From a virus, in the IMG/VR virus record IMGVR_UViG_3300003322_000968, positions 1-64,000 of that record: DNA of 64,000 nucleotides, one strand, 5' to 3'. Numbering within the stretch: position 1 is the stretch's first letter; each line of letters begins with the position of its first letter. A program made the position numbers and the translations under genes. The notes under the pieces were generated by a model. It did no database searches. It was given only the letters and a program-made list of their open reading frames with translations, and had not been told where the DNA came from. This document shows positions 45,601 through 58,641 of this stretch, in pieces.

Positions 45601-45834
45601 ATGGCGATGAATGGCCAACGAATAAAGATAGCCCAAGCATTAATAAAGATAGCTCCAGAGGTTACCGCCAAGGACAGAACAGACTGCGCAAAAAAACTGA
45701 AGCTATCAAAGGAAACTATATGCTATTACCTGGGCGGAAAGGTGTCAAATAATGACAAGGCATTAAAGGTGCTCGAATTCCTAAAGGACCGCATAAAATG
45801 GCGTGAACAAGAAATTCAAAAACTATGCAAGTAG
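45601..45834 (+). CDS. Cro-like HTH protein
   Basis: 77 residues. IKIAQALIKIAPEVTAKDRT then CAKKLKLSKETICYYLGGKV (~7-47) is a helix-turn-helix like Cro/CI; a basic tail ends KWREQEIQKLCK. First gene of the rightward early operon, opposite the repressor. It overlaps the next gene by 10 bases. Confidence 0.6.
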   Translation: MAMNGQRIKIAQALIKIAPEVTAKDRTDCAKKLKLSKETICYYLGGKVSNNDKALKVLEFLKDRIKWREQEIQKLCK

Positions 45835-46118: not shown

Positions 46119-46125
46119 CCACTCA

Positions 46126-46160
46126 ATTAACTAACAAACTAAATACATTGACAGCGTATG
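46126..46160 (+). promoter_or_regulatory. 35-bp start-associated box, copy 3 (plus)
   Basis: Opens ATTAACTAACAAACTAAA and ends ATTGACAGCGTATG on the start of the next gene. About 31 of 35 positions equal copy 2, so conservation runs over the whole block rather than only the ATG-proximal part. Confidence 0.65.
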
Positions 46161-46616: not shown

Positions 46617-47097
46617 GCTATTTAACATCCAGTACGAATATGCGCAATTGTTGGGTAAGATAGAAGAGGCTGAAGGTGAGATTACCCCGGAGATTGATCA
46701 GGCCTTACAGTTTACAGAAAACAGGATGCATGAAGCCGGCGAGAACATCGGTATGAGCATTAAGGCGCTTGAATACTGGGAAGATGACATTGAAGCGGAG
46801 TTAAAGCGCTTAGAAAAAATGCGCAATAGTACACGCAAGGGCATTGAATTATTGAAAAACCGACTAGCCCAGGCCATGCAGCAGTTTGGCATAGAACGCA
46901 TTTCCAGCCCTACAATCACCGTTTCATTTCGTAAATCTGAAGCGGTCGAGATCCTGGATGAGTCTGTTATACCTGCTGCATATTTTGAACCTCAACCGCC
47001 AAAACTGCGTAAGTCCTTAATTAAGGAGACCATTAAAGCGGGCCGCGATGTACCAGGGGCAGAAATAGTACAACGCCAGAATTTACAAATCCGGTAA
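46603..47097 (+). CDS. Siphovirus Gp157-family protein
   Basis: 164 residues. A long helical first half (MHEAGENIGMSIKALEYWED; EAELKRLEKMRNSTRKGIEL) precedes ISSPTITVSFRKSEAVEILD and IPAAYFEPQPPKLRKSLIKE, the mixed coiled coil then short beta domain of PF05565 (Gp157). Family members are found beside recombination or single-strand annealing genes and may bind DNA or the recombinase. Exact role not settled. Confidence 0.8.
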   Translation: MSPNKLFNIQYEYAQLLGKIEEAEGEITPEIDQALQFTENRMHEAGENIGMSIKALEYWEDDIEAELKRLEKMRNSTRKGIELLKNRLAQAMQQFGIERISSPTITVSFRKSEAVEILDESVIPAAYFEPQPPKLRKSLIKETIKAGRDVPGAEIVQRQNLQIR

Positions 47098-47098
47098 A

Positions 47099-47461
47099 AT
47101 GTTAATTATCACTACAGGCCGAACTCCAGATAGAACACCGACTGTGTTTACGGATATTTTCAAGGTAGCCTATCGGGAGCGGTTGCCTATTGATCTGCTT
47201 GTTAAGAAGGTTATAGATGATGGTTATGTTATTGACTGGGATGCGGAGATTGAAGGCGCTTTAAAGCTTGGAATAACACAGGAAACAATATTGAAAGGAT
47301 TAGGCACAGCATATAAATACCTCTACCCCGATCTGCATTTGTACTACCTGGAAAAAGCGAAATGGTATTTACGCTTAAGGCCTAAGAAAGTTGGTAACCC
47401 AGATCACACCATTAAAACCTATATCAATGATTCAAAATCTTCAGCTTCAGGCAATACTTGA
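47099..47461 (+). CDS. Hypothetical protein, 120 residues
   Basis: Starts MLIITTGRTPDRTPTVFTDI. The later part is beta/alpha mixed (AEIEGALKLGITQETILKGL; YLYPDLHLYYLEKAKWYLRL). No family seen. It starts 1 base after the Gp157-like gene and overlaps the next gene by 35 bases; same operon. Confidence 0.5.
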   Translation: MLIITTGRTPDRTPTVFTDIFKVAYRERLPIDLLVKKVIDDGYVIDWDAEIEGALKLGITQETILKGLGTAYKYLYPDLHLYYLEKAKWYLRLRPKKVGNPDHTIKTYINDSKSSASGNT

Positions 47462-47810
47462 TACAATAGAGGGAACTGGCTTTGATCAGGTGCAATCTAT
47501 TACGCTCCTAATTGACTGGGGCTTTAAATTACAACAATGGATGGCCTTCGCCGGTAGCCAACAGGCCGAATGCAAACGCGCCTTGCACGTTGCTCGAAGG
47601 CAGGCGATGGTCAACCTTGTTGCAAGCTTGCAGGCCAATGGCGCTGATATGGCAATCTCATTACAAAAACAATATGTGGATGATTTGTGCGCAGAGGAGA
47701 ATTACAACTATGAATTAGCGCAGCGCTGTAATAGGGCATGCGTACACGCCATTGATCTGGTTAGAACAGTAATCACAACACTTCGGACCGAAATTCAGAT
47801 GATCAAATGA
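47427..47810 (+). CDS. Hypothetical helical protein, 127 residues
   Basis: ATG 47427 fits better than an upstream in-frame start because it limits overlap with the neighbour. Almost wholly helical: NLQLQAILDTIEGTGFDQVQ, later QQAECKRALHVARRQAMVNL and EENYNYELAQRCNRACVHAI. No recognised family. The stop overlaps the HNH gene start by 4 bases. Confidence 0.5.
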   Translation: MIQNLQLQAILDTIEGTGFDQVQSITLLIDWGFKLQQWMAFAGSQQAECKRALHVARRQAMVNLVASLQANGADMAISLQKQYVDDLCAEENYNYELAQRCNRACVHAIDLVRTVITTLRTEIQMIK

Positions 47811-48475
47811 GTAGACTTATTGATATAACAGGTGTAAGATTCGGAAGAATACAAGTGGTGAGCATGTATACTTTCAAAGGAGGAAGAACTTATTGGTATT
47901 GGAGGTGCGATTGCGGCAGAATTAATTTAAGTGAAGCGTATAGCCTAAAATCCGGAGGTACTAAATCATGCGGCTGTTTCAGGGTCGAGCAAACATCTAA
48001 AAGGAAAATTACACACGGGCTACGCAAACATCCACTGTACGATATATGGAGTAAAATAAAAGAGCGCTGTAATAATAGCAAAAATATAGCCTATAAGAAT
48101 TATGGAGGGAGGGGAATTTCGGTTTTCAAACAATGGGAATGTTCATTTGATTCTTTCTATAAATGGTGTATTGAAAATAAATGGGAAAAGGGACTAGAAA
48201 TTGATCGGATTAATAATAACGGAAATTATGAGCCCCATAATTGCAGAATTGTAACAAGAAAAATAAACTCGCGAAATCGTCGCACAAACAAGCCGATTCA
48301 TTATATGGGGAAATTATATTGGTCTTGGGAACTAGAGGAGATTTATGGAATTCCTAAAATAATAATTCAACGACGGCTGCGCGATTATAAATGGCCAATC
48401 GAAAAAGCCTTAACAATGCCAGTATTAAAAAGAAATCGAAAACTCGTTAATTATGACACAGCTACCGTTGTTTAA
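47807..48475 (+). CDS. HNH-type homing endonuclease
   Basis: 222 residues. An N-terminal zinc-ribbon-like part (YWRCDCGRI, then SCGCF, ~32-65) precedes HPLYDIWSKIKERCNN and NYGGRGISVFKQWECSFDSF. EIDRINNNGNYEPHNCRIVT (~146-165) is the metal-binding D-R-x-N-x-x-G-x-Y-x-x-x-N-C core of this HNH type. The C-terminus has a possible DNA-binding helix-turn-helix. Overlaps both neighbours (4 and 23 bases), as the other endonucleases do. Confidence 0.75.
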   Translation: MSRLIDITGVRFGRIQVVSMYTFKGGRTYWYWRCDCGRINLSEAYSLKSGGTKSCGCFRVEQTSKRKITHGLRKHPLYDIWSKIKERCNNSKNIAYKNYGGRGISVFKQWECSFDSFYKWCIENKWEKGLEIDRINNNGNYEPHNCRIVTRKINSRNRRTNKPIHYMGKLYWSWELEEIYGIPKIIIQRRLRDYKWPIEKALTMPVLKRNRKLVNYDTATVV

Positions 48476-48767
48476 TGATGAAGAAACCCCACAGCAGCCT
48501 GATAAGAAAACCAGGCCGATGAGTATCCGCGCAAAGGCGCGTAAGATCATACGGGAAGAAGGGCTATACAATTATGCAATGGTGATTAAAGCGGTTTTTG
48601 AAGCTGATGAAAAACACATAGAAGCGAAATACAACATACCAAAATCTGGCTTATGTGACTTATTGATTCGTGAGTTTGATATGGCAGTAGGCTATCAAGA
48701 GTCACTGATTGATTTCCTTCATCATGTAAAAAATATTCCGGGTTACGGTTTACAAAAAATCGAATAA
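48453..48767 (+). CDS. Hypothetical protein, 104 residues
   Basis: Starts MTQLPLFNDEETPQQPDKKT. The core is helical, with IRAKARKIIREEGLYNYAMV and EAKYNIPKSGLCDLLIREFD. No family recognised. It overlaps the HNH gene by 23 bases, suggesting that the endonuclease was inserted immediately before it. The N-terminal LPLFN is a short motif of the QLPLF type seen in beta-clamp-binding peptides, a possible but unproved link to host replication. Confidence 0.5.
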   Translation: MTQLPLFNDEETPQQPDKKTRPMSIRAKARKIIREEGLYNYAMVIKAVFEADEKHIEAKYNIPKSGLCDLLIREFDMAVGYQESLIDFLHHVKNIPGYGLQKIE

Positions 48768-48768
48768 C

Positions 48769-49023
48769 ATGAATAGGCTCAATACACGTAGCGCAACCAC
48801 TGCTACACCGCACTATCTCTATGATTTGTCTATGCCATTGCCTGAACGGCAATATAAGCGCATGCTTTTCCCAAGCGCTATTGCCGCCGCTGCATTTTTA
48901 GGAGTGCCCCCACAACGCATTTATCTCAGTCGTTCTTCTCGGCATCGTATCTGGTCAGAGGCGCAAGGGCGCTGGTTCGCTGTAAGGATTGCAAATACCA
49001 AAACCATTACAACCAATGAATGA
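48769..49023 (+). CDS. Hypothetical protein, 84 residues
   Basis: Starts MNRLNTRSATTATPHYLYDL. Basic; SAIAAAAFLGVPPQRIYLSR resembles the NUMOD1-type helix-turn-helix, and the C-terminus ends WFAVRIANT. It overlaps the next gene (ATG at 49016) by 8 bases. No enzyme motif. Confidence 0.45.
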   Translation: MNRLNTRSATTATPHYLYDLSMPLPERQYKRMLFPSAIAAAAFLGVPPQRIYLSRSSRHRIWSEAQGRWFAVRIANTKTITTNE

Positions 49024-49369
49024 TCGCTATCTACTGCAACAGATGCTGCAGCGCGTAAAGGCTATCAATCCTGACTATCCGGCAGATATGCAGATTGACG
49101 GTAGGCATCTTTTAAAAGCAGCCGAATTCGTTTATAAGCAAATGTCCTTAGATCGCGGCGTTGAGAATAATGCCTATGAAATTATACCGGTTTGGGATCA
49201 GCTCTATACCGCCGCCTATAACGACCCTTTCTATAAGGATAAATCCCTGGCGACTATTTGTAACCATATACAAGAATTCTATCAAAAGGTTAAGAACGGC
49301 AATGGAAAACAAATCTCTGGTACCAAGCTCAAGCAAAAGCTTGCTGCCCGCCTTAAGAACAGGAAATAA
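49016..49369 (+). CDS. Hypothetical protein, 117 residues
   Basis: Starts MNDRYLLQQMLQRVKAINPD; helical (DGRHLLKAAEFVYKQMSLDR) with a basic end (KQISGTKLKQKLAARLKNRK). No family recognised. It overlaps the next gene by 68 bases and sits within the replication-type operon. Confidence 0.45.
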   Translation: MNDRYLLQQMLQRVKAINPDYPADMQIDGRHLLKAAEFVYKQMSLDRGVENNAYEIIPVWDQLYTAAYNDPFYKDKSLATICNHIQEFYQKVKNGNGKQISGTKLKQKLAARLKNRK

Positions 49370-49928
49370 GCAGGCCATCAATTGGCACTTACAACTATTT
49401 AAACAGCATGGCGCTATACGCCATGACCTGACACTACAAATACCAAGCGCAGAACGCATACCAGCCCTAACAAGGACCGATGCTGGATATGATGAGATCA
49501 ATACTATTCTTGCAATATACCTCACCCAAACGTTTAATAATCTCAATTTAAGAAAGGGCTTTAATGAGGATCAGGTGCTCGATTTAGCAGAAATGATTAT
49601 TGAAGAAGCGAAGGAGGATAACTTAAGCCTGGAGGACGTAATGCTGTTTCTTCAGCAATTAGTAACAGGTAAGGCTGGTAAGATATTTGACCGGCTGGAT
49701 ATACCAACCTTTTTTGAGCTATTTGAGGGCTATAGGCAGGATCGACACCTAGCATTACAATATATACACTATGAGGCCGAAGTGCAGTTTAAAGGGATGG
49801 GCGACACGACACGGACCAGCGATGGCAATATGGAGAACGATGAAAATACAAGACGGGTTATGGCCGATTACTATAAAAACTCTATGAATAATGAAAGTCA
49901 ACCCATTCAGCCGCCGCCTGCGCCCTGA
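49302..49928 (+). CDS. DUF6633-like replication-associated protein
   Basis: 208 residues from ATG 49302, because the longer frame starts inside its neighbour. ILAIYLTQTFNNLNLRKGFN (~66-85), LAEMIIEEAKEDNLSLEDVM (~92-111) and GKIFDRLDIPTFFELFEGYR (~125-144) match a pattern I associate with DUF6633, common in Bacteroidetes phage replication modules, where it may take the place of a replication initiator. Function not established. The Pro/Gln-rich C-terminus overlaps the VRR-NUC gene. Confidence 0.5.
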   Translation: MENKSLVPSSSKSLLPALRTGNKQAINWHLQLFKQHGAIRHDLTLQIPSAERIPALTRTDAGYDEINTILAIYLTQTFNNLNLRKGFNEDQVLDLAEMIIEEAKEDNLSLEDVMLFLQQLVTGKAGKIFDRLDIPTFFELFEGYRQDRHLALQYIHYEAEVQFKGMGDTTRTSDGNMENDENTRRVMADYYKNSMNNESQPIQPPPAP

Positions 49929-50253
49929 GGATAAGTTACACGCAAGCGTTTGCGACTATATACTTTGGACCTATCCCGGAGCCGTTATACACCACTCGCC
50001 TAATGAAGGAAAACGTACGGCATTTGAGCGGTATTTAATGAAGGTCCTGCGCGTCTCCAGTGGCTTTCCTGACCTGCTAATATTTTACCGTGGCCAAACG
50101 ATCGCCATTGAATTAAAGGCCGGTAAAAACTGTATGACGGTCAATCAACAACGATGGATTGCGTTGCTCAAGGAATACTTCCCTGCGTCCTGTTGTACGG
50201 GCTTTGATGAGGCAACTGCTTTTATTGATGAGTATTTTAAAAACCTTAAATAA
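49891..50253 (+). CDS. VRR-NUC domain nuclease
   Basis: 120 residues. KLHASVCDYILWTYPGAVIH (~15-34), SSGFPDLLIFYRGQTIAIEL then KAG (~57-79) and VNQQRWIALLKEYF (~84-97) form the VRR-NUC/PD-(D/E)XK core: a Glu/His helix, the catalytic P-D-x(n)-E-x-K, and a Q-x-x-W helix. These small virus-type nucleases cut structured DNA. It follows the DUF6633-like gene in the early operon. Confidence 0.85.
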   Translation: MKVNPFSRRLRPEDKLHASVCDYILWTYPGAVIHHSPNEGKRTAFERYLMKVLRVSSGFPDLLIFYRGQTIAIELKAGKNCMTVNQQRWIALLKEYFPASCCTGFDEATAFIDEYFKNLK

Positions 50254-50261
50254 ACAAAAAA

Positions 50262-50281
50262 CCACGCCTTATGGGGCGTGG
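50262..50281 (-). terminator. Hairpin with U-tract on the minus strand
   Basis: Stem CCACGCC / GGCGTGG. Reading leftward, the stem is followed by TTTTTTG; reading rightward, by CAATTGCC. It faces against the early operon. Confidence 0.6.
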
Positions 50282-50342
50282 CAATTGCCAGTATCTATAT
50301 GTAACAAAAAAGGAGGTACACCTAATCTACTCATTAAATTTC

Positions 50343-50732
50343 ATGTATCCAACAAAAATTCCCTTGCGAGAAATTGAACGCTCAATATCAATTAATTGTG
50401 CAATTGACAAATCCTCCCCAAAAACGCTGCAGCTCATGAAGTGGCAAGGCCAGAACCAGTATCTAAGACAAGGTTTAGGCCGGTGCCTATTTGTGTACAT
50501 TGCCTTAAAATCAGGCTACAATCAAGAGGAGATTTGCGACTATTTGACTATGAGCGAACAGGAGTACTTGCAGCAATCCGGGATCCTGGATGAATACTAC
50601 AATAACGGGCGCTTATTGTTTGAATCAGTTGGCACAAAAGCCGGCTATTTAGAAACTAAAGACGCCTGCTTATTCTTTTACCGCAAGCTAGTATTAGCGG
50701 AGAACTATTTGCGGTATAGGTTTGGGTTATAA
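50343..50732 (+). CDS. Hypothetical protein, 129 residues (DnaA-C-like helices possible)
   Basis: ATG 50343 (MYPTKIPLREIER) is preferred because longer starts cross the hairpin. The middle GRCLFVYIALKSGYNQEEIC then DYLTMSEQEYLQ has the helix pattern of a bacterial DnaA C-terminal or mycobacteriophage-type HTH (alternative domain assignments equally open). ICDYL is encoded by a copy of the recurrent 13-mer (50533-50545). Last gene of the early operon, followed by a hairpin. Confidence 0.5.
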   Translation: MYPTKIPLREIERSISINCAIDKSSPKTLQLMKWQGQNQYLRQGLGRCLFVYIALKSGYNQEEICDYLTMSEQEYLQQSGILDEYYNNGRLLFESVGTKAGYLETKDACLFFYRKLVLAENYLRYRFGL

Positions 50733-50741
50733 ACTAAAAAG

Positions 50742-50765
50742 CCCCAGTGTTGAAACACCAGGGCC
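50742..50765 (-). terminator. Hairpin with U-tract on the minus strand
   Basis: Stem GCCC-CA-GTGTT / AACAC-CA-GGGC. Leftward reading continues TTTTTAG; rightward reading continues CCGAGC. It sits at the end of the rightward early operon but is oriented to stop leftward transcription coming from the array. Confidence 0.55.
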
Positions 50766-50799
50766 CGAGCTAATAGCTACTTGCTATTTGGAAGAAAAG

Positions 50800-50849
50800 C
50801 CCAAGCGGGCAAAAAACACTATATATGAAAAGACAAAATCATTATTAAA
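50800..50849 (+). promoter_or_regulatory. Plus-strand hairpin plus AAAAAACACTATATATG element at the left border of the array
   Basis: A small stem GCCC-AAGC-GGGC (50800-50811) is followed at once by AAAAAACACTATATATG, whose ATG (50826) opens a 7-residue ORF ending at 50849. The same plus-oriented word AAAAAACACTATA recurs after a hairpin at 58049-58070, the right border. Within the array the related leader is always on the minus strand, so these two look like border copies. Confidence 0.5.
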
Positions 50850-51501
50850 AGTATCCCTTAATATAATCCCAAATTCGCTCTTTTATAGCTAACATTCCTT
50901 TATCGGATGGGTGAGAGCATATACCGGGATCAGCATAAAGCCCCTTCGCAGTATTTGTTTCATCTTTTTGTAAATCAGAATTTAAAATGAAAGCATATTT
51001 TTCCCGGTAAGCCCACTTTCTTATTTCCATATTAAGTGCTTTATTCCAAAATCCATCTACAATTACAACAACAGCATTTGAGGTGTTAAGGTAATTTATC
51101 AACCTTTCGTAATATTCAATGAAATCAATAGCTCCTTCTGGTACATTCTCAGATATTCGGAAAATATACAAATCAGCTCCTTTTAATAAATCCAATTGCT
51201 GAAGATCATAGGTTTTAAATTCTCTTTCAAATGCTGCTATGTTTTTAAACTCAATTGATGTACCGGGGGATTTGTCTTTGATGCTTTTAATCAGTAGATG
51301 AACAAAATCTGAATCTAAAGCGGAAGCTGCCATTCCCCAATCATGTTCCCATCCAATAGAAGGTAGCGGAGCATGTTGTACAATACTGTTACCTAAGATT
51401 ACTACCTTTTGAATTTTCCCAACCTTAGCATTGATTATAGGATTGGGTTGATTACAGGCAAAAAGATATAATGTAAAGATTAGTAAGCTAATGCGGCGCA
51501 T
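50845..51501 (-). CDS. Lipoprotein with SGNH/GDSL-hydrolase fold
   Basis: 218 residues. The N-terminus RRISLLIFTLYLFACNQPNP has a lipobox (L-F-A-C), so it should be lipid-anchored outside the cytoplasm. KVVILGNSIVQHAP (~31-44) is the GDS-type block I with the nucleophilic Ser, and ICSHPSDKGM (~200-209) the D/H-containing block V (order S-H-P-S-D-K-G). Members hydrolyse acyl or acetyl esters. It is not a usual virion gene and looks like a lysogenic-conversion cargo gene altering the host surface. A strong hairpin (51519-51546) lies upstream. Confidence 0.6.
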   Translation of the reverse strand: MRRISLLIFTLYLFACNQPNPIINAKVGKIQKVVILGNSIVQHAPLPSIGWEHDWGMAASALDSDFVHLLIKSIKDKSPGTSIEFKNIAAFEREFKTYDLQQLDLLKGADLYIFRISENVPEGAIDFIEYYERLINYLNTSNAVVVIVDGFWNKALNMEIRKWAYREKYAFILNSDLQKDETNTAKGLYADPGICSHPSDKGMLAIKERIWDYIKGYF

Positions 51502-51518
51502 AGATTAAATTTAAAAAT

Positions 51519-51546
51519 GGCCAGGATATTTAGTAGTATCCTGGCC
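51519..51546 (-). terminator. Hairpin between the array and the lipoprotein gene
   Basis: A 10-bp perfect stem GGCCAGGATA / TATCCTGGCC. Leftward reading continues TTTTTAAATT, an intrinsic terminator ending the last array transcript; the lipoprotein gene starts 18 bases further. Confidence 0.7.
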
Positions 51547-51620
51547 GCGATGCACATATCAAATATAAATTACCGCGACGAATGTAAAGAAAAGTCCAAA
51601 AATGTCAATATAATTTGCGA

Positions 51621-51848
51621 CTATTTTGCCTTACGGTTATAATTACGCATTTCAAATCTGATAACGCCGCTTCGGTCACGCCACGCATAAAGCGTATCGG
51701 GGCGTAGGCTGTCGAATGAAACAACTTCCAACTCTTCTGGTAAGTCAATTTGCGAGAGCTTGTGTGCGGTAAAGGTAAGGCCGGAGATAATAAATAAAAC
51801 CAGGACACTGAGCGCTATAGTGAGCGCGGTTACGTTTCGTTTATACAT
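51621..51848 (-). CDS. Array gene: small membrane protein, 75 residues
   Basis: ATG 51848 chosen since the longer frame starts in the upstream hairpin region. One transmembrane helix (LTIALSVLVLFIISGLTFTA, ~9-28) then a polar exterior domain with YAWRDRSGVIRFEMRNYNRK. It ends just ahead of a TTTGCGACTATTT copy. Leader here is AAACTAAACCAAATG, not the AAACACT form. Confidence 0.5.
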   Translation of the reverse strand: MYKRNVTALTIALSVLVLFIISGLTFTAHKLSQIDLPEELEVVSFDSLRPDTLYAWRDRSGVIRFEMRNYNRKAK

Positions 51849-51883
51849 TTGGTTTAGTTTGTTTATATAAAACAAAAGCCCGG

Positions 51884-52429
51884 CTATTTGCCGGGCTTAG
51901 TAACAACCTGATCTATTGCAGTTTTTATCTGTTCTTTTGTAAGATACCATGAGCTTACTTTAATACAATTCTTACCATTAAATGTTATCACTGACACTTC
52001 GCAGGTATCCCCTATGAGCGCGGTAAGCGCCTGCGCCAATCTGTTAATTTCGCTCAAGTCTTTTGAGCTGCTTGACCTGATTACCTCTGATCGTTTATCA
52101 AGCCTTGGCGGTCTTTTTTTCATAACCAATCGCTCCGGTCCGGGGCTATGAGCCTCAAGATAGGCCGCTAATTTTGCGACTATTTCAGGGTCATTTGAAG
52201 GATATTCCCGCAAAGAAGAGGCCGTAATGATGTGTGTGGCCCCTTTTATTTGCGTATTCAGGAACCAAAATTCATGATCAAGGCTGCCGGCATTTGCTAC
52301 TATTTGGTTATTATGCAGGGCGCAGGTTGTAATAGCCTCATTCCTGCAATTGGCTGCCCAATCGGCCATTTCTGTAACCAAGGGCTGTCTGTAACGGCAA
52401 AGGGTTATTTTCGAAGGCTTTTTTGACAT
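51884..52429 (-). CDS. Array gene: hypothetical protein, 181 residues
   Basis: Starts MSKKPSKITLCRYRQPLVTE. Later YPSNDPEIVAKLAAYLEAH and DLSEINRLAQALTALIGDTC look helical, with a beta end (FNGKNCIKVSSWYLTKEQIK). Leader AAAACACTGTTATG. The stop codon is in the loop of hairpin 51878-51896 (codons for P-G-K then stop), so terminator and coding end are fused. The gene carries two copies of the 13-mer. Function unknown. Confidence 0.55.
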   Translation of the reverse strand: MSKKPSKITLCRYRQPLVTEMADWAANCRNEAITTCALHNNQIVANAGSLDHEFWFLNTQIKGATHIITASSLREYPSNDPEIVAKLAAYLEAHSPGPERLVMKKRPPRLDKRSEVIRSSSSKDLSEINRLAQALTALIGDTCEVSVITFNGKNCIKVSSWYLTKEQIKTAIDQVVTKPGK

Positions 52430-52571
52430 AACAGTGTTTTTGTTTTTAACTATATCATACCATAAATAGCAAAGCCCGCAAAAGCGGGCAGTAAACGTAA
52501 ATTTCAATTCATAGGCGAATTCTTTTTATGTTTTGCGACTATTTTAGTCAGCAATGATCAGTAATACGATC

Positions 52572-52841
52572 CTACGCTTTGCGATCCTGGTGAAACCGGC
52601 AGCGCTCACCAGGTTTTGCGACTATTTGTTGGCACTTGCCACCCTTGGCCTTATCGGCCCCGCAGCGCAGCGTGTTGGGATCGTGAAACCGGCAATAGCC
52701 AGACGGTAATACAAACGGCGACATACATTGTACAGAATCTTTCAGTTTCTTGTCGTAGCGCTTGCCCTTACATTGGGGGTTCTGGGCTATTACGGTAAGT
52801 GTTACCAGTAATAGCCCCAAAATAACGGTTAGAGTTTTCAT
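52572..52841 (-). CDS. Array gene: secreted Cys-rich protein, 89 residues
   Basis: A signal peptide (KTLTVILGLLLVTLTVIAQN) leads to a mature domain with repeats of the form C...CRFHD (YCRFHDPNTLRCGADKAKGG) and ERCRFHQ. The pattern resembles DUF5763-like small zinc/disulfide proteins. It would be exported to the periplasm. Leader AAACAATTAACATG. It contains a 13-mer copy encoding IVAK. Confidence 0.55.
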   Translation of the reverse strand: MKTLTVILGLLLVTLTVIAQNPQCKGKRYDKKLKDSVQCMSPFVLPSGYCRFHDPNTLRCGADKAKGGKCQQIVAKPGERCRFHQDRKA

Positions 52842-52903
52842 GTTAATTGTTTATAATAAAAAACCCCGCATTTGCGGGGTTGGTAGGGATTAATAAACGG
52901 GGC

Positions 52904-53146
52904 CTATTTGTTGTTTTCTTTGAATGCTTTATATTCCGCCTTGCACCATTGCTTATAGTCGGTTTTTGTGACGCCTGCCTCTTTGTCTCTTTGTTCTTCA
53001 TACCCGTTTCTGTTTTCCCAATAGCTTTTAGCGGTTGCCTCGGTCATGAATTTTGCAGCCTTGGGGGTTTTATAATCTTCTGGGTAAAGCCTCATATTCT
53101 CTCTGAACAATTCCTTTATTATTTGCTCAATGTTATGTTTTTGCAT
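52904..53146 (-). CDS. Array gene: charged protein, 80 residues
   Basis: Starts MQKHNIEQIIKELFRENMRL; strongly charged and helical with YKQWCKAEYKAFKENNK at the end. No family recognised. Leader AAAACACTCAATATG; upstream hairpin 53168-53184. Confidence 0.5.
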   Translation of the reverse strand: MQKHNIEQIIKELFRENMRLYPEDYKTPKAAKFMTEATAKSYWENRNGYEEQRDKEAGVTKTDYKQWCKAEYKAFKENNK

Positions 53147-53172
53147 ATTGAGTGTTTTAAATACAAAAGCCC

Positions 53173-53473
53173 CTATTCGGGGCTATGCATTGTGGTTAAA
53201 ACTTCATTCATTTCTTCACCAGGAATAAACAGCACTTCCGCGCTGTCGTCATTGTCGTTTTGCTGCGTAATTTTTAGGCTATTGTCACGATAAACGATAT
53301 AAATGCGTCCCTCGTAATTAATGCTTGAAATAGCGCATTTAATAGGCTCTGAAGGCAGTTCGTCAATTGAGGTCTGCTTAATAATGCGGGCCCAATTTTA
53401 AAAGTTCTTCATGATCCCATTCGCCATGCAGGCGCGCTTGAATTGCTCGTAATGCTTGAACTGTGTTATACAT
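53173..53473 (-). pseudogene. Array gene split by a +1 frameshift (about 99 codons)
   Basis: ATG 53473 follows the AAACACT leader and opens a frame (MYNTVQALRAIQARLHGEWD) that stops after 31 residues at 53378. The next frame, without its own start, continues with KQTSIDELPSEPIKCAISSI and ends TTMHSPE at 53173, where the TAG lies in the loop of hairpin 53168-53184 like other array genes. Skipping one base at TTTTAAAATTG joins the two. Either a one-base insertion, a sequencing error, or programmed +1 frameshifting. A similar site is seen at 62917-62922. Confidence 0.55.
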
Positions 53474-53567
53474 ATAAGTGTTTTTAAATACAAAAACCCC
53501 GCCCAGCAACCTGGAACGGGGTAAACACTCTGTCCAACGAAAAAGAGGGTTTAACGTTTTCCCGATG

Positions 53568-53921
53568 TCAGGAAAACGCTTCAATAAATTCTTTATCCCA
53601 GTCGCCGTTTTCGTCAAATACGGTGTATTCGCAATTATCATATGCGCAATATAACGGATAGCCTGAGCGTGAATTTAAATTCGTTGCAAAGATTACCGGT
53701 TTGCCGTTAACGGTTATATTATAATTTGCAACATAAATATCCCCGCTGCTATCGTCTTTTTCGATCCTGAACGGCTCACCATTTTCTACTATTTGTATTG
53801 TAATACCCTCGGGCCGGTCATGCTGATCGCTTTTGATTAAAAGGTGCCCCATGCAGCGTAATAATTTTGCTTCATTGAAAAAATCGCGGGGTATAACGCG
53901 TAAATAGCTACTATTTGTCAT
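53568..53921 (-). CDS. Array gene: hypothetical protein, 117 residues
   Basis: Starts MTNSSYLRVIPRDFFNEAKL. Beta-rich middle (GITIQIVENGEPFRIEKDDS; IYVANYNITVNGKPVIFATN) and an acidic C-terminus ENGDWDKEFIEAFS. Leader AAAACACTTATATG; upstream hairpin 53942-53968. Function unknown. Confidence 0.5.
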   Translation of the reverse strand: MTNSSYLRVIPRDFFNEAKLLRCMGHLLIKSDQHDRPEGITIQIVENGEPFRIEKDDSSGDIYVANYNITVNGKPVIFATNLNSRSGYPLYCAYDNCEYTVFDENGDWDKEFIEAFS

Positions 53922-53992
53922 ATAAGTGTTTTAACTAAAAAGCCCCGCGCAATTGCTTGCAACGGGGCCGCTTTCCATCTAAAACCAAATAG

Positions 53993-54430
53993 TTAAACGC
54001 GCATAAACTCCTTCAGATCGTATTGAGTGCTACCATGTGTGAAATAGGCTCCGCCCTCCTCGTGCTCAATCTCCGCCTCATAAATTTCTTCATGCTCCAT
54101 ATCCTGCCCGTAATTAAACCGGTAATACACCCCGTCATTGCTATGATTAAACATAATTTCAATGCCGCCATGATTGCAAATTGTAAGTGTTGCATCTGGC
54201 TTGAATCTATCGGGGCTTATATCTGCAACCTTCCCCACTATTAATTCAAATTCGCGCCACCAATCGCCAATGGTATGTTTTTCGCCCATATCATTAATGG
54301 TTTGGCAGTCCATTAACGCCGCCTCGGTGTCAATACGGCGACCGGTTTCAACTGTGTAGATTTTGCCTTTAGTAAAGCAGCCGCCGCCATTGTGCAGGTT
54401 ACTTTTTGCTTTAATTTGATAAGTATTCAT
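53993..54430 (-). CDS. Array gene: hypothetical protein, 145 residues
   Basis: Starts MNTYQIKAKSNLHNGGGCFT then KGKIYTVETG, a small SH3-like barrel opening. Central KPDATLTICNHGGIEIMFNH, and the acidic end HEEIYEAEIEHEEGG. Leader AAACACTCATAACATG; upstream hairpin 54455-54471. No known family. Confidence 0.5.
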   Translation of the reverse strand: MNTYQIKAKSNLHNGGGCFTKGKIYTVETGRRIDTEAALMDCQTINDMGEKHTIGDWWREFELIVGKVADISPDRFKPDATLTICNHGGIEIMFNHSNDGVYYRFNYGQDMEHEEIYEAEIEHEEGGAYFTHGSTQYDLKEFMRV

Positions 54431-54488
54431 GTTATGAGTGTTTATTAATAGAAAAGCCCCAATGAGGGGCTAAATTTGCTACTATTTG

Positions 54489-54713
54489 TTACAGATCATC
54501 GGGGCCAAATGTATGCCAGCTAATGTAGCTATAGAGCCTATTTAATACAATCATAGCGCGCAAAGATTCCGCCGTAAATGATTTTAGTGTATTGTCAGCG
54601 CCGTGAAGCGTATTATATAACAATTTGGCTTCTGTGCCATGGGGATCAATTTTTCCCTCTTTAATGCGCTTAACAAACTGCTTGACCTGATTGTTTAATT
54701 CTGCTTTTGTCAT
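54489..54713 (-). CDS. Array gene: hypothetical protein, 74 residues
   Basis: Starts MTKAELNNQVKQFVKRIKEG; helical and basic, with TLKSFTAESLRAMIVLNRLY in the second half. Ends WHTFGPDDL. Leader AAACACTCATACAATG; upstream hairpin 54735-54759; a 13-mer copy lies right after the stop. Confidence 0.5.
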   Translation of the reverse strand: MTKAELNNQVKQFVKRIKEGKIDPHGTEAKLLYNTLHGADNTLKSFTAESLRAMIVLNRLYSYISWHTFGPDDL

Positions 54714-54743
54714 TGTATGAGTGTTTATTAATACAAAACCCCG

Positions 54744-55010
54744 CTATTTGCGGGGTTTTAGCTTTTGGAATGTATCTGTAATTATATAATAACAATCCTT
54801 TCCTTCTGCATGGCCTATTATGACAAAACCGTTTTGTTGCAACCAATATTCAGCGATCTCACAACTATCTTTGCCGTAATCAGCATCAAAGGGTATGATA
54901 ACAGACTGCTTAAATCTTTCGCTTTTAATAGAAATACGCGCCGGTTGCGTGTTAGTCTGTCCAACGTATTTAACTATCAGAATGTGGTAATTAGGTATTT
55001 TAGTATTCAT
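54744..55010 (-). CDS. Array gene: hypothetical protein, 88 residues
   Basis: Starts MNTKIPNYHILIVKYVGQTN; beta-rich with SERFKQSVIIPFDADYGKDS then CEIAEYWLQQNGFVI. The stop sits in the loop of hairpin 54735-54759 (coding P-R-K then TAG). Leader AAAACACTTATATG; upstream hairpin 55033-55061. Confidence 0.5.
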   Translation of the reverse strand: MNTKIPNYHILIVKYVGQTNTQPARISIKSERFKQSVIIPFDADYGKDSCEIAEYWLQQNGFVIIGHAEGKDCYYIITDTFQKLKPRK

Positions 55011-55086
55011 ATAAGTGTTTTATAAATACAAAAGCCGGCCAGGGCGAAACCTGAACCGGCTAACGTGTACCTATGAAAAACCGACC

Positions 55087-55338
55087 TTAATAAGCGCTAA
55101 TAATTTCCAATTTATTGCTTTCGCAAAAATCATTGACCTTATAAAAATCAGCAAGATTAGATGTTTTCACCAACGAATACCCTAATGAATTAATAGATTC
55201 TGTCAAGTCTTGTAATCTGTATTTATCTACCCTGGTAAGCAGGTGTGAATATTCATCAATTTCTTTAATGGCATTTTCTAAGCGCTCTAAATCTTGTTGC
55301 AATTTTATTTGTGCAGCTTTTTTAGTTTGTTTTCTCAT
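55087..55338 (-). CDS. Array gene: coiled-coil protein, 83 residues
   Basis: Starts MRKQTKKAAQIKLQQDLERL followed by ENAIKEIDEYSHLLTRVDKY: a charged coiled coil. C-terminus YKVNDFCESNKLEIISAY. Leader AAAACACTTAATACAATG; upstream hairpin 55364-55391. Confidence 0.5.
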   Translation of the reverse strand: MRKQTKKAAQIKLQQDLERLENAIKEIDEYSHLLTRVDKYRLQDLTESINSLGYSLVKTSNLADFYKVNDFCESNKLEIISAY

Positions 55339-55422
55339 TGTATTAAGTGTTTTTAACTAAAAAACCCCGCTGGAACGAAACCAGACGGGGCTATGTGCTC
55401 TATCGGCTATAACAGAGATAAG

Positions 55423-55662
55423 CTAGTCAGCTATTTGGTTTGCTTGCTGTATTGCAAATTTCGTTTCGTGGATACGGCTTAAATTACCAGTTACTATTTC
55501 ACCAGTTGCCGCCCCAACTGCATTGCATAGTTGCTGCCGTATATTATCATCCTGCACATGCAGCCCTAACAATTGGGCCTGCGCTTTAATGTTAAAGTAA
55601 GCAATTGCATTATTGGCGGCCGCAACTAAATCGGCCATTATTTTAGTCTCTTTGTTTGTCAT
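55423..55662 (-). CDS. Array gene: helical protein, 79 residues
   Basis: Starts MTNKETKIMADLVAAANNAI. The middle AYFNIKAQAQLLGLHVQDDN and the rest are helical and Gln/Ala-rich. No family recognised. Leader AAAACACTTGTATG; upstream hairpin 55686-55704. Confidence 0.5.
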   Translation of the reverse strand: MTNKETKIMADLVAAANNAIAYFNIKAQAQLLGLHVQDDNIRQQLCNAVGAATGEIVTGNLSRIHETKFAIQQANQIAD

Positions 55663-55691
55663 ACAAGTGTTTTATAAATACAAAAGCCCGG

Positions 55692-56165
55692 TTATTTGCC
55701 GGGCCTGTAAAATTCAACATAACTTAAGTCTTTGGTGTACCTTACTCGAACATTGTTCGGCAAACCCCAGTAAGCGCCACCTTTATCATATGCGGGTTCG
55801 CTCATTGGTATGTATTCATCAAATATCTTTGTACCAGCTGGTGGCGGCACTCCTATATTTGATCTGCCCATTGGAGCGCCATGTTTACCATTAACGGGGG
55901 TTATGATCTGGTTAACCAGCCGTTTACCGTTCAGGACATATAGGTCATAGCCCTGGCTTTTTAGCTCCCGTTGCAAGGTTATATAATCGGCCCTGCGCGC
56001 TCGTTTAAGTTTCTTGCAATATTCAACTTTTGCAGTACTGTGTTGCCCAATATGGCTATAGCAATATATGTCAAGGCCCGGGTTAACCCAGTCACTGCCG
56101 GGAAATACAGCTAATACACCACGGGGGTTTTCTTCAATCAGGAATAATACGGTTGTTTTGCTCAT
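55692..56165 (-). CDS. Array gene: hypothetical protein, 157 residues
   Basis: Starts MSKTTVLFLIEENPRGVLAV; then DIYCYSHIGQHSTAKVEYCK and LQRELKSQGYDLYVLNGKRL. C-terminal VRYTKDLSYVEFYRPGK, with P-G-K-stop in the loop of hairpin 55686-55704. Mixed alpha/beta. Leader AAAACACTTGTATG; upstream hairpin 56187-56213. Function unknown. Confidence 0.5.
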   Translation of the reverse strand: MSKTTVLFLIEENPRGVLAVFPGSDWVNPGLDIYCYSHIGQHSTAKVEYCKKLKRARRADYITLQRELKSQGYDLYVLNGKRLVNQIITPVNGKHGAPMGRSNIGVPPPAGTKIFDEYIPMSEPAYDKGGAYWGLPNNVRVRYTKDLSYVEFYRPGK

Positions 56166-56219
56166 ACAAGTGTTTTAAATAATAAAGCCCGCATGCATAG
56201 AAATGCAGCGGGCATTTAA

Positions 56220-56372
56220 TTAGTCTGGTTGTAATTCAATTGCAGCAGGAACATAATCGCCGTCATTTAGCCAGTATTCTGAATGGGCGCTATTTTCGTC
56301 TAACTGCCTGATTATTGCGCCCATTACTTTAATTAAGTCAAGCGCTTCAATCAACTTTTGTTTGTCATCCAT
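56220..56372 (-). CDS. Array gene: small acidic protein, 50 residues
   Basis: Encodes MDDKQKLIEALDLIKVMGAI, later HSEYWLNDGDYVPAAIELQP; one helix then a polar tail. It falls between the array neighbours with typical short gaps. The leader lacks AAACACT (ATTTATGGATG), and no hairpin separates it from its upstream neighbour. Confidence 0.5.
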   Translation of the reverse strand: MDDKQKLIEALDLIKVMGAIIRQLDENSAHSEYWLNDGDYVPAAIELQPD

Positions 56373-56394
56373 AAATAAAAAAGTTTTTGAATGA

Positions 56395-56586
56395 TTAGTC
56401 GGGTTTAACCCATGCTGAAACCGTCAGGGAAATAGCTTTACCGTTTGCTTTAACATCTGTGCGCTTAGCGCCGTTACTGCTAGCTACAATAAGCGTTTTG
56501 CCGCTGCCGCTCATTTTAGGCGCCTCTAAGGGCAATGTGATTACAAGATGTTGCCTGCCTTCGATTGTCTTGAGTTCAGTTTGCAT
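56395..56586 (-). CDS. Array gene: hypothetical protein, 63 residues
   Basis: Starts MQTELKTIEGRQHLVITLPL, with APKMSGSGKTLIVASSNGAK in the centre and a beta-rich end (GKAISLTVSAWVKPD). The GSGKT resembles a P-loop by chance in so short a protein. Leader AAAACACTTTATATG; upstream hairpin 56607-56625. Confidence 0.5.
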   Translation of the reverse strand: MQTELKTIEGRQHLVITLPLEAPKMSGSGKTLIVASSNGAKRTDVKANGKAISLTVSAWVKPD

Positions 56587-56613
56587 ATAAAGTGTTTTAA
56601 ATAAGAAAAGCCC

Positions 56614-56943
56614 TTAACGGGCTTTCTTGTTAGCGAATTCACGGGCTTTTAACCAGTATTTTGCAGCGTTGGGAGCATTGTCTGGGTGGTAATGTATGTT
56701 TTCCTCCCGCTCTGTATTGGTGCCATAGTCTTTTATATAAAATCCTGTACTATACCACGAACTAATGCTTGCGCTGTCAGGGCTCTGAGAGGCATGTATG
56801 TGTGTTTTCATTAATGCAACCAACTCCCTAAATGTTACTTGCTGCTTTTCTTCAATAAAGCCAGTATCTGAATAATCCCCTATTGCAGCGCTTTCGGGTG
56901 TAGTTTCAGCGTATGTGCGCGAAATGATTATGTAGTTGTTCAT
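56614..56943 (-). CDS. Array gene: hypothetical protein, 109 residues
   Basis: ATG 56943 (MNNYIIISRTYAETTPESAA) follows AAACACTCATATC; a longer frame starts in the hairpin. The middle TGFIEEKQQVTFRELVALMK is alpha/beta, and the end KYWLKAREFANKKAR is basic; its stop lies in the loop of hairpin 56607-56625. Upstream hairpin 56966-56995. Function unknown. Confidence 0.5.
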   Translation of the reverse strand: MNNYIIISRTYAETTPESAAIGDYSDTGFIEEKQQVTFRELVALMKTHIHASQSPDSASISSWYSTGFYIKDYGTNTEREENIHYHPDNAPNAAKYWLKAREFANKKAR

Positions 56944-57000
56944 GATATGAGTGTTTATAAAACAAAACCCCCATACAACTAAATGCATGGGGGTTAATAT

Positions 57001-57207
57001 TTAAAAATCCGGGGTATGTTCAACCTGTTCCCCGTTTGCTTTTTCACATAAGTGAACACTTACCATGTGCTCCTTACTCTTTTTGGGCTTAAAGTAGGCA
57101 ATAGCTTTCTGTTTTGCTTCATATAAATCATTAGCCCAAATGTCGGTTTCTTTGTCATTGTAAAATGCCTTATAGCCATTTAGGCCATTTGTTTTATTGT
57201 TTTCCAT
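57001..57207 (-). CDS. Array gene: hypothetical protein, 68 residues
   Basis: Starts MENNKTNGLNGYKAFYNDKE then TDIWANDLYEAKQKAIAYFK, a compact alpha/beta fold as in other phage proteins of the form Y-K-A-F-Y-x-x-K-x-x-E-V-x-A-x-S-x-Y-E-A. Leader AAAACACTTTACAATG; upstream hairpin 57229-57254 has one mismatch. Confidence 0.5.
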   Translation of the reverse strand: MENNKTNGLNGYKAFYNDKETDIWANDLYEAKQKAIAYFKPKKSKEHMVSVHLCEKANGEQVEHTPDF

Positions 57208-57260
57208 TGTAAAGTGTTTTAATTAAAAATGCCCGACTAATTAAAGTCAGGCATTGGTAA

Positions 57261-57338
57261 TTAATGAGTACGTATAAATTGCGCGACAATGTTTGCCAGC
57301 ACAACAAAGGAGCTGATCAAATAATTTACATATTTCAT
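57261..57338 (-). CDS. Array gene: tiny membrane peptide, 25 residues
   Basis: Encodes MKYVNYLISSFVVLANIVAQ then FIRTH: a single hydrophobic helix with a positive end. It lies between two hairpins like its neighbours; its leader is AAACTTGTTAACGATATG rather than the AAACACT form. Confidence 0.45.
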   Translation of the reverse strand: MKYVNYLISSFVVLANIVAQFIRTH

Positions 57339-57382
57339 ATCGTTAACAAGTTTATATAATAACAAAACCCGCATTAAGCGGG

Positions 57383-57820
57383 TTAATCTTCAATTACGTG
57401 ACCATCTAAATTTAAAAGGAACAGGTGAATGTCTAAATCATTTCCCCTGAATATTTTACAACACTCATTCATTAAAAAGTCCATATGATGCGCATCCTGC
57501 TCATGTATTCCTTTTAAACAATCTGCCGCGCTATCGTCCGGGTTGTAAAGCTCACCGTTATTATATAACTCGGTCAGATACGTTTTGGCCTGTTCTAATG
57601 TTGTAATACCCTCAGGTAGTGTTGTTTTAATAAGTCGGGGCGCTGGCTTTTTGAGTTCCGTTAGTTTCCTTTTAGCAAGGGCCGTAACCACTTGTATTAT
57701 GTCGCATATTTCAAGGTCATTTAATTGCGCAGCGGCAGCAACTTCATTTGCCGCTTTAGCAATTGCAGCCGCTTTATTTATTTCAGCCAACTGTTCCGGC
57801 GTTAAATCTTTGTATTGCAT
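57383..57820 (-). CDS. Array gene: hypothetical helical protein, 145 residues
   Basis: Starts MQYKDLTPEQLAEINKAAAI; helical Ala-rich first part, then LPEGITTLEQAKTYLTELYN and AADCLKGIHEQDAHHMDFLM. Ends LFLLNLDGHVIED. Leader AAAACACTCTTATG; upstream hairpin 57843-57862. Function unknown. Confidence 0.5.
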   Translation of the reverse strand: MQYKDLTPEQLAEINKAAAIAKAANEVAAAAQLNDLEICDIIQVVTALAKRKLTELKKPAPRLIKTTLPEGITTLEQAKTYLTELYNNGELYNPDDSAADCLKGIHEQDAHHMDFLMNECCKIFRGNDLDIHLFLLNLDGHVIED

Positions 57821-57870
57821 AAGAGTGTTTTATAAATAAAAAAACCCGCTTTAATGCGGGTTAATTGCTT

Positions 57871-57972
57871 TTAAAATAACAGAATCAATGTCATAATTAC
57901 CAACAAGGGAATAAGAGAACAATAAAGGACTATAAGCAACCGTGAATAGCATTCAGCAAATAATTGTTTCAT
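57871..57972 (-). CDS. Array gene: small membrane peptide, 33 residues
   Basis: Encodes MKQLFAECYSRLLIVLYCSL then IPLLVIMTLILLF: one hydrophobic helix. A longer upstream frame crosses the hairpin, so the ATG at 57972 after AAACACTTGT is preferred. First gene of the array; upstream hairpin 57993-58022. Confidence 0.5.
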   Translation of the reverse strand: MKQLFAECYSRLLIVLYCSLIPLLVIMTLILLF

Positions 57973-58022
57973 ACAAGTGTTTATAAAACAAAACCCCCGA
58001 ATACATTGCTGCAAACGGGGGC

Positions 58023-58641
58023 TTAAAACACTAGAGCAGGCAAAAGCCTGCCAAAAAACACTATAATTAACTAATAACAAACTTCTTATGGTTATAGCGT
58101 GTTATCTTCACAGCGTAACAGCGCTATAATAATTATATTGCTCGTTAGTCATTCAAATACAATCTCATTTAACCTAACTATTCAGCAAATGCATCTTACT
58201 GCAATGCTATTGTTCCACACAAATAAATGAGTATTGTAACCCGATTGCTATAATGTATAATTGAGCCATTATAGCGCGTAATGTATTACGCTTGCGCAGC
58301 AGTAGCGGTCAGTAGAGTGGAAACTCATTGGAGAGGCAATATTGCTATTGTCCCCGTCGCGCCCCTGGTAGGTGTTTATTGACCTGGATTTACAGGTGCT
58401 AGCCCATTACGGGCAACTAGCTGGCCAGCACTAACAAAATGTTAGCTTATTTACTGGCAATCGGTAATTAGAGCAATCCCTGGCTTGATCTATGTCAAAT
58501 AGCTAATTGTTATAGCAAGGTTTGAGCGCCTTTGCTGTAACAACAATGCTAAGATAGTACATTTGTTACAATTGCAATACATTTGTAACAAAATAAAATG
58601 TTAAATAGGTAAATAGTTGTAGTGAAGGTAGTTATAAAGCG
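58023..58641. ncRNA. Gene-free, hairpin-rich region: candidate structured RNA, promoter or origin
   Basis: No convincing ORF. A plus-oriented hairpin (GCAGGC/GCCTGC, 58037-58054) is followed by AAAAAACACTATA (58054-58066). Further on four small stems follow one another: ACCTG/CAGGT (58382-58397), GCCC/GGGC (58402-58414), the palindrome GCTGGCCAGC (58420-58429) and CTAAC/GTTAG (58431-58445). ACATTTGTTACAATTGCAAT and ACATTTGTAACA form near-repeats at 58559-58591. It may hold the promoter of the array, an ncRNA or a replication origin; type not decided by sequence alone. Confidence 0.4.

What the first reader, a model, noticed from the sequence alone, without database searches (positions are those of the whole stretch)
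51519..58022. Array of 19 small genes, most with their own terminator hairpin and start-associated AAACACT leader
Seen: over 6.5 kb nearly every gene ends in a GC-rich stem-loop with a T-tract, and 15 of 19 starts are preceded by AAACACT 3-7 bases before ATG. Stem sequences differ between cassettes while the layout is constant, and the genes are unrelated ORFans (membrane peptides, secreted Cys-rich, coiled coil). Established: cluster K mycobacteriophages (e.g. TM4) have start-associated sequences with upstream inverted repeats before many small ORFs. Inference: an independently evolved, unrelated system in a Bacteroidetes phage that lets cassettes be swapped and expressed as separate units, perhaps an early takeover or counter-defence locus.
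Basis: partly seen in the sequence, partly recalled or inferred. Interest (0 to 1): 0.85.

Follow-up and report, generated by a model that had tools for sequence, protein, structure and literature searches.

The report
Terminator-plus-leader before each phage gene
A virus of Bacteroidota-type bacteria carries a row of about 20 small unrelated genes, nearly every one preceded by the same two-part signal, a transcription-stop hairpin about 24 bases before the start codon and then the word AAACACT, which suggests a standard plug-in expression module of a kind not described for these phages.

Summary
On the minus strand of 50.8-58.1 kb, 20 small genes follow one another. 18 of 20 starts have an intrinsic terminator (d-score >0) just upstream, against 1 of 107 other starts in the same genome. 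AAACACT lies 3-7 nt before 15 of 19 starts in the reported array and before none of 107 others. One correction: the hairpins belong to the following start, not to the preceding stop (stem to ATG 23.8 +/- 2.5 nt; stop to stem 8.6 +/- 18.5). The array genes are not related to one another, and the cassette genes with wider homologues sit elsewhere in ordinary operons without hairpins. The fixed 24-nt gap holds no host-type promoter and has no room for one, unlike the T4-type PeSL elements recovered as a control, so separate per-gene transcription units are not supported. I favour a shared, partly read-through transcript, punctuated before each gene by an attenuator and a common translation-start leader. 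The exact system was not found elsewhere. Related phages carry other start-associated repeats: AACACTATCAA in Callevirus, and a 16-bp palindrome in MW202828. New variant of a known kind; function is untested.

The parts
51519..58022 (-). whole array of 19 small genes with start modules (direction of reading 58022 to 51519)
57973..58021 (-). start module of gene 1: hairpin 57994-58021 (d=22), T tract, AAACACT 57976-57982
   Evidence: AGTGTTT copies upstream can pair with this leader
57871..57972 (-). gene 1, 33 aa, membrane peptide
   Evidence: weak coding signal
57821..57860 (-). start module of gene 2: hairpin 57845-57860 (d=34.5), AAACACT, 3-nt spacer
57383..57820 (-). gene 2, 145 aa
57339..57382 (-). 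start module of gene 3: hairpin 57368-57382 (d=16.5), degenerate leader TATAAACTTG
57261..57338 (-). gene 3, 25 aa, membrane peptide
   Evidence: weak coding signal
57208..57253 (-). start module of gene 4: hairpin 57230-57253 (d=13), AAACACT, 5-nt spacer
57001..57207 (-). gene 4, 68 aa, phrog_19202 (unknown function)
56944..56993 (-). start module of gene 5: hairpin 56968-56993 (d=30), AAACACT, 6-nt spacer
56614..56943 (-). gene 5, 109 aa, homologue in Xylophilus phage Lumi (Lumi_093)
56587..56622 (-). start module of gene 6: hairpin 56610-56622 (d=9), stop of gene 5 inside the hairpin, AAACACT, 4-nt spacer
56395..56586 (-). gene 6, 63 aa
56220..56372 (-). gene 7, 50 aa, the only gene with neither hairpin nor leader
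56166..56213 (-). start module of gene 8: hairpin 56187-56213 (d=15), AAACACT, 3-nt spacer
55692..56165 (-). gene 8, 157 aa
   Evidence: weak match in Ruegeria phages
55663..55704 (-). start module of gene 9: hairpin 55686-55704 (d=12), stop of gene 8 in the hairpin, AAACACT
55423..55662 (-). gene 9, 79 aa
55339..55390 (-). start module of gene 10: hairpin 55365-55390 (d=21), AAACACT, 7-nt spacer
55087..55338 (-). gene 10, 83 aa, charged, helix-rich look
55011..55060 (-). start module of gene 11: hairpin 55034-55060 (d=13), AAACACT
54744..55010 (-). gene 11, 88 aa
54714..54755 (-). start module of gene 12: hairpin 54739-54755 (d=19), stop of gene 11 in the hairpin, AAACACT
54489..54713 (-). 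gene 12, 74 aa
54431..54470 (-). start module of gene 13: hairpin 54456-54470 (d=16), AAACACT
53993..54430 (-). gene 13, 145 aa, weak phrog_17101
53922..53968 (-). start module of gene 14: hairpin 53942-53968 (d=20), AAACACT
53568..53921 (-). gene 14, 117 aa, widespread phage family (IPRDLFNEA motif); confident fold (pLDDT 91) without a known match
53474..53521 (-). start module of gene 15: hairpin 53497-53521 (d=28.5), AAACACT, preceded by complementary AGTGTTT
53378..53473 (-). gene 15, 31 aa; an open frame continues in another frame to about 53169 (possible frameshift or sequence error)
53147..53183 (-). start module of gene 16: hairpin 53169-53183 (d=19), AAACACT
52904..53146 (-). gene 16, 80 aa
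52842..52879 (-). start module of gene 17: hairpin 52864-52879 (d=42), degenerate leader AAACAAT
52572..52841 (-). gene 17, 89 aa, N-terminal hydrophobic segment, Cys-rich
52430..52489 (-). start module of gene 18: hairpin 52474-52489 (d=14), 44 nt from ATG, AAACACT
51884..52429 (-). gene 18, 181 aa
51849..51896 (-). start module of gene 19: hairpin 51878-51896 (d=41), stop of gene 18 in the hairpin, degenerate leader AAACAAA
51621..51848 (-). gene 19, 75 aa, N-terminal hydrophobic segment
51502..51546 (-). hairpin 51519-51546 before gene 20, 17 nt from its ATG; no AAACACT, d below 0
50845..51501 (-). gene 20, 218 aa, likely last gene of the series
58026..58062 (+). two plus-strand copies of AAACACT (58026, 58056) beside hairpins; on the array RNA they read AGTGTTT and can pair with the leader of gene 1
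   Evidence: 4 plus-strand copies in the region, 0.47 expected

Best explanation
The array is a set of plug-in expression cassettes that share one start module: an intrinsic-terminator hairpin, an AT-rich stretch and AAACACT, ending 3-7 nt before ATG, about 24 nt in all from stem to start. Most likely (inferred) the genes are transcribed together on one or a few long minus-strand transcripts coming from upstream. Each hairpin acts as a partial terminator (attenuator) and as an insulator that gives every start codon a clean, unstructured landing strip of about 20 nt. AAACACT then acts at the RNA level as a common translation-start signal, read either by the host's A-rich, non-Shine-Dalgarno initiation or by a phage or host factor, so that unrelated genes acquired from other phages are expressed in a standard way. 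Shown: the module, its anchoring to the start, its statistics, the lack of relatedness among the genes, and the absence of a host-type promoter in the gap. Inferred: attenuation, read-through, the RNA-level role of AAACACT, and gene acquisition into the array.
For: Terminator score >0 at 18/20 array starts against 1/107 others. AAACACT at 15/20 against 0/107. Stem-to-ATG 23.8 +/- 2.5 nt against stop-to-stem 8.6 +/- 18.5, Levene p=4e-5: the hairpin goes with the start. Gene 1 also has the module although about 620 bp of non-coding DNA lie upstream of it. No TAnnTTTG between hairpin and ATG, and the gap is too short for a promoter, whereas RB49 units of the PeSL type have full promoters in gaps of about 70-110 nt. 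The AT-rich part before AAACACT shows no fixed -10 hexamer. A at -3 or -6 in 17 of 19 starts and the open stretch after the stem fit the initiation rules measured in Flavobacterium johnsoniae (PMC6847099). Array proteins are unrelated to each other; relatives of genes 5 and 14 lie in ordinary operons without hairpin series. A start-associated AACACTATCAA repeat in Callevirus phages shares the core AACACT.
Against: No transcript data; the terminators may be strong, which would then need an unknown promoter or antiterminator for each gene. Exact conservation of CACT is more than known Bacteroidota initiation needs. No factor that reads AAACACT was identified. No second genome with this array was found, so conservation over evolution is untested.
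Confidence: 0.5

Rival explanations
1. Each cassette is its own transcription unit: the terminator ends the previous RNA and the AT-rich stretch with AAACACT is a phage-specific promoter giving very short-leader or leaderless mRNAs, a compact version of the terminator-promoter (PeSL) design.
For: Good terminators at nearly every junction; AT-rich TATTTATA-like stretch before AAACACT; terminator-promoter junctions occur in some relatives: elemoF and phi38:1 have hairpins followed by TAtcTTTG or TAtaTTTG.
Against: No host-type promoter in the gap, no sigma-70 region 2 match in the record, no conserved -10 hexamer, gap of only 20-29 nt in 17 of 18 modules with d>0. A T7-type RNA polymerase search also gave nothing, but its control did not ring, so that is uninformative.
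Confidence: 0.22
2. Ordinary compact-genome punctuation: plain terminators placed between short genes plus a Bacteroidota-type A-rich translation start, with AAACACT spread by copying of leaders and no dedicated system.
For: Hairpins are canonical terminators; leaders fall into near-identical groups (genes 1/5, 9/11, 12/13, 10/14) as if copied; a terminator about 25 nt before a start is also seen at the capsid junction of unrelated uncultured phages.
Against: The rest of the same genome has neither feature (1/107 and 0/107); stems vary while AAACACT stays exact; the hairpin is fixed to the start rather than the stop.
Confidence: 0.16
3. AAACACT is a DNA site for a phage regulator (stoperator or operator-like silencing sites at each gene start in a temperate phage).
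For: The phage encodes a tyrosine recombinase; relative MW202828 has 14 copies of a 16-bp perfect palindrome, many just upstream of small genes, which looks like an operator.
Against: The 7-mer is asymmetric and short; 15 of the 19 copies in the region point with transcription and sit 3-7 nt from ATG, the other four point the other way beside hairpins.
Confidence: 0.07
4. A site-specific recombination cassette array (integron-like), the hairpins being recombination sites.
For: Many small unrelated genes in one orientation, hairpins with conserved layout and varied sequence, a tyrosine recombinase about 10 kb away.
Against: No inverted core-site pair around most hairpins, T tracts present, hairpins fixed to the start codons, recombinase scores far below Xer cut-offs.
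Confidence: 0.05

Closest known systems
PeSL elements (composite promoter-terminator cassettes) of T4-type phages such as RB49 (Arbiol 2010; Comeau 2014, cited in PMC4503421)
   Same: A stem-loop terminator directly upstream of small, unrelated early genes, repeated at many junctions, proposed to help gene shuffling.
   Different: PeSLs carry an early promoter between terminator and start (found in RB49 by the same scan). Here the gap is about 24 nt with no promoter, nearly every gene of one block has a module, and a fixed AAACACT is added.
Start-Associated Sequences and extended SAS of cluster K mycobacteriophages (PMC3203893)
   Same: A short asymmetric conserved word 3-7 nt before ATG of many small non-structural genes, in about half of the cases with an inverted repeat upstream.
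   Different: SAS is a 13-mer containing AGGAG; ESAS repeats have a conserved sequence and mostly do not support RNA pairing. Here the word is AAACACT without SD; stems vary in sequence but always pair and score as terminators.
AACACTATCAA repeat of Callevirus phages phi38:1 and Calle_1 (Pervagoviridae; found here)
   Same: Start-associated, co-directional repeat in small-gene regions of related Bacteroidota podoviruses, with the core AACACT.
   Different: No hairpin; longer word; usually abuts the upstream stop codon.
GTGTCGTTAACGACAC palindrome of podovirus MW202828 (found here)
   Same: Repeated inverted repeat before small genes in the nearest named relative.
   Different: Invariant 16-bp perfect palindrome without T tract, also inside genes; looks like a DNA operator.

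Membership tests
Cluster K SAS/ESAS | 13-bp GGGATAGGAGCCC (up to 2 mismatches) at gene starts | tested here: not met
   0 matches in 51-58 kb, 2 elsewhere in the record; 11 in TM4 as control
Cluster K SAS/ESAS | conserved word 3-7 nt before the start codon of many small non-structural genes | tested here: met
   AAACACT at 15 of 19 starts, spacers 3-7 nt; analogy only
Cluster K SAS/ESAS | 17-bp inverted repeats with a conserved sequence | tested here: not met
   stems of varied sequence
PeSL (T4-type) | terminator stem-loop upstream of small genes | tested here: met
   18 of 20 starts, d>0
PeSL (T4-type) | early promoter between stem-loop and start | tested here: not met
   no sigma-70 (at least 9/12) or TAnnTTTG promoter in the gap; RB49 gives 7 gaps with promoters of at least 10/12
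PeSL (T4-type) | mediates gene shuffling between relatives | tested here: inconclusive
   no relative with the array was found
Integron cassette array | attC sites with inverted core sites around each hairpin | tested here: not met
   complementary AGTGTTT is present only at genes 1 and 15; read from the sequence, no attC model run
Integron cassette array | IntI integrase | tested here: not met
   recombinase 40612-41754 matches XerD/XerC/XerA models only far below cut-off
crAss-like phages | crAss-like structural genes as closest relatives | tested here: not met
   TerL and portal nearest to MW202828, Elemovirus and Cellulophaga podoviruses; crAss muzzle match below cut-off

The most novel reading that the evidence does not exclude
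A dedicated phage gene-expression code: a phage or host factor recognises AAACACT in RNA and, together with regulated read-through of the attenuators, switches on the whole block of accessory genes at once, so that any gene fitted with the module joins the regulon. Related Bacteroidota phages would use different codes (AACACTATCAA, GTGTCGTTAACGACAC).
Probability: 0.25. Interest if true: 0.82.

Novelty: new variant of a known kind. Interest (0 to 1): 0.6.

Why it matters
How phages give newly gained small genes a working expression signal is an open question, and Bacteroidota phages, whose hosts ignore Shine-Dalgarno sites, are poorly understood in this respect. A uniform module on some 18 unrelated genes is a natural experiment: it defines a start signal that can be tested in a reporter, and it gives a way to find accessory-gene blocks in other phages. 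The parallel start-associated repeats in two related phage groups suggest that each lineage keeps its own code.

Tried and rejected
Scans of IMG/VR with the leader: the first gave 88 single hits, and of the 80 examined none had a terminator hairpin before it; the second gave hairpin-plus-leader hits, but mostly one capsid-junction gene family whose homologues in other contigs have a different leader (GTGCTAATAAAAAACAT), so AAACACT there is probably lineage chance. TerL and CRISPR-repeat scans of the genome collection found no host or prophage. AAACACT as a general start signal of relatives: rejected; it is not enriched at their starts (0.96-fold), only the AACACTATCAA form in Callevirus. Rfam gave nothing above threshold worth keeping. 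A pattern comparison with a reversed control looked positive but is biased by A-rich starts; replaced. An alignment for a covariance model was not usable because stems differ in length. Fold search for gene 14 found no match.
Full report
WHAT WAS CHECKED. The window is bases 1-64000 of a 77,572-base IMG/VR virus record. The phage has terminase, portal and tyrosine recombinase matches. Its terminase and portal are closest to a 77% relative in IMG/VR (G001, 51 kb, which does not cover the array), then, at about 20-31%, to podovirus MW202828, Flavobacterium Elemovirus, Cellulophaga Pervagoviridae and Pachyviridae and Tenacibaculum phages. Only 2 of 124 starts have a Shine-Dalgarno-like site. A Bacteroidota host is therefore likely, not shown.

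OBSERVATION. Nineteen small genes lie head to tail on the minus strand, 57972 to 51621, with a twentieth (51501-50845) after the last hairpin. AAACACT occurs 3-7 nt before 15 of the 19 starts and before none of 107 other starts in the genome; no 7-mer is shared by more than 5 of 20 shuffled windows. Terminator scores are positive at 18 of 20 array starts and at 1 of 107 others; folding z-scores average -3.9 against -0.1. Nine related or comparison genomes have 0-6 such starts each. In-frame codon usage supports most of the ORFs; genes 1 and 3 (membrane peptides of 33 and 25 aa) are not supported by it.

ANATOMY. Read on the minus strand each module is: C-rich arm, loop, G-rich arm, T tract, AT-rich stretch, AAACACT, 3-7 nt, ATG. 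The 3' end of the stem lies 23.8 +/- 2.5 nt from ATG, whereas the upstream stop lies anywhere from inside the hairpin (5 cases) to 46 nt before it (82 nt for gene 18, left out of the mean). Gene 1, which has no gene for about 620 bp upstream, has the module too. So the hairpin belongs to the start. The positions before AAACACT are AT-rich without a fixed hexamer, while the seven letters are invariant in the 15 (the 15 were chosen by that word; of the other four, three keep AAAC and gene 7 has nothing). Leaders form near-identical pairs on unrelated genes (1/5, 9/11, 12/13, 10/14), which suggests copying of leaders. Four AAACACT copies on the opposite strand, all beside hairpins, exceed the 0.47 expected; at genes 1 and 15 the resulting AGTGTTT can pair with the leader around the terminator.

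ORIGIN OF THE CARGO. The array proteins are not related to each other. Ten of them were scanned against Pfam and PHROGs, with one solid match, to a PHROG of unknown function. Gene 5 has a homologue in Xylophilus phage Lumi, and gene 14 belongs to a family found in Rhizobium and Erythrobacter phages and 47 IMG/VR loci; the neighbourhoods examined are ordinary operons and show no comparable hairpin series. The module is thus a property of this phage's array, not of the genes. That the genes were acquired and fitted with the module is an inference.

MECHANISM. Two readings compete. (a) Separate units: a terminator for the previous RNA and a new promoter for the next. (b) A shared RNA in which each hairpin attenuates and insulates and AAACACT marks the translation start. 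The Bacteroidota promoter TAnnTTTG occurs in no gap, the gap is too short for a promoter, and no sigma factor was found (the T7-type polymerase search was uninformative). The same scan applied to RB49 recovers terminator-promoter units with promoters of up to 12/12 and long gaps. In F. johnsoniae translation initiation depends on A residues at -3, -6 and -12/-13 and on low structure from -20 to +20 (PMC6847099); the modules give such an open stretch bounded by the stem, and 17 of 19 starts have A at -3 or -6. I therefore favour (b) at about 0.5 and (a) at about 0.22. None of this has been tested by experiment.

RELATIVES. A k-mer search that was not told what to look for found a start-associated AACACTATCAA in Callevirus phages phi38:1 and Calle_1 (10-11 copies of AACACTATCA, mostly at the upstream stop and before the next start) and a 16-bp palindrome in MW202828 (14 copies, 8 intergenic, six of these 16-23 nt before an ATG). 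AAACACT as such is not enriched at starts of the marine relatives. So lineage-specific start-associated repeats recur in this phage group, but this combination was seen only here. Collections were searched with exact patterns and near records may be left out, so absence elsewhere is not proven.

KNOWN SYSTEMS. It resembles SAS/ESAS and PeSL in layout but fails a defining feature of each, so it is filed under neither. The PeSL papers were not available in the library; their description rests on PMC4503421, on titles and on my own knowledge, plus the RB49 control. No paper describing this arrangement was found.

Noticed in passing
record G000 69059-70366 and 70519-71640 (L009 11260-12567 and 12720-13841), outside the window: A CRISPR array of about 19 repeats (36-nt repeat GTTGTATCAACCTTGCAAATTAGTGCTACATACAAC, 66-bp period, one end degenerate) beside a 373-aa TnpB/Cas12f/Cas12u3-like protein (PADLOC 3e-43). 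One spacer matches the phage's own 71785-71814 with one mismatch; no target found in named phages.
   Followed up: partly
window 44943-54488: Motif TTTGC[GT]ACTATTTG: 12 copies with up to 2 mismatches, all on the plus strand, 1.8 expected; lies both inside genes (different frames) and between them, so a DNA-level signal is likely.
   Followed up: partly
window 58050-58641: A 592-base non-coding stretch upstream of the array that folds unusually well (z -3.8), with a palindrome near 58565-58600 and two TACATTTG boxes on the plus strand; possible regulatory RNA, operator or origin.
   Followed up: no
MW202828 43745-55169 (record coordinates): Perfect 16-bp palindrome GTGTCGTTAACGACAC in 14 copies, 8 of them between genes and six of those 16-23 nt before an ATG.
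   Followed up: partly
phi38:1 (NC_021796) and Calle_1 (NC_062744): AACACTATCA repeated 10-11 times, co-directional with the genes, usually at the upstream stop codon and before the next start.
   Followed up: partly
window 53169-53473: Gene 15 ends after 31 codons but an open frame continues in another frame to about 53169; a sequence error, a frameshift or an unusual start.
   Followed up: no
L211, L251, L011-L097 and others: In uncultured phages with a protein related to one of Nonlabens phage P12024S a terminator sits about 25 nt before the gene after the major capsid-like gene, with stems that change while the layout is kept.
   Followed up: partly
window 53568-53921: Gene 14 family (IPRDLFNEA motif) is widespread in phages of other bacteria, is predicted with high confidence (pLDDT 91) and matches no known fold.
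   Followed up: yes
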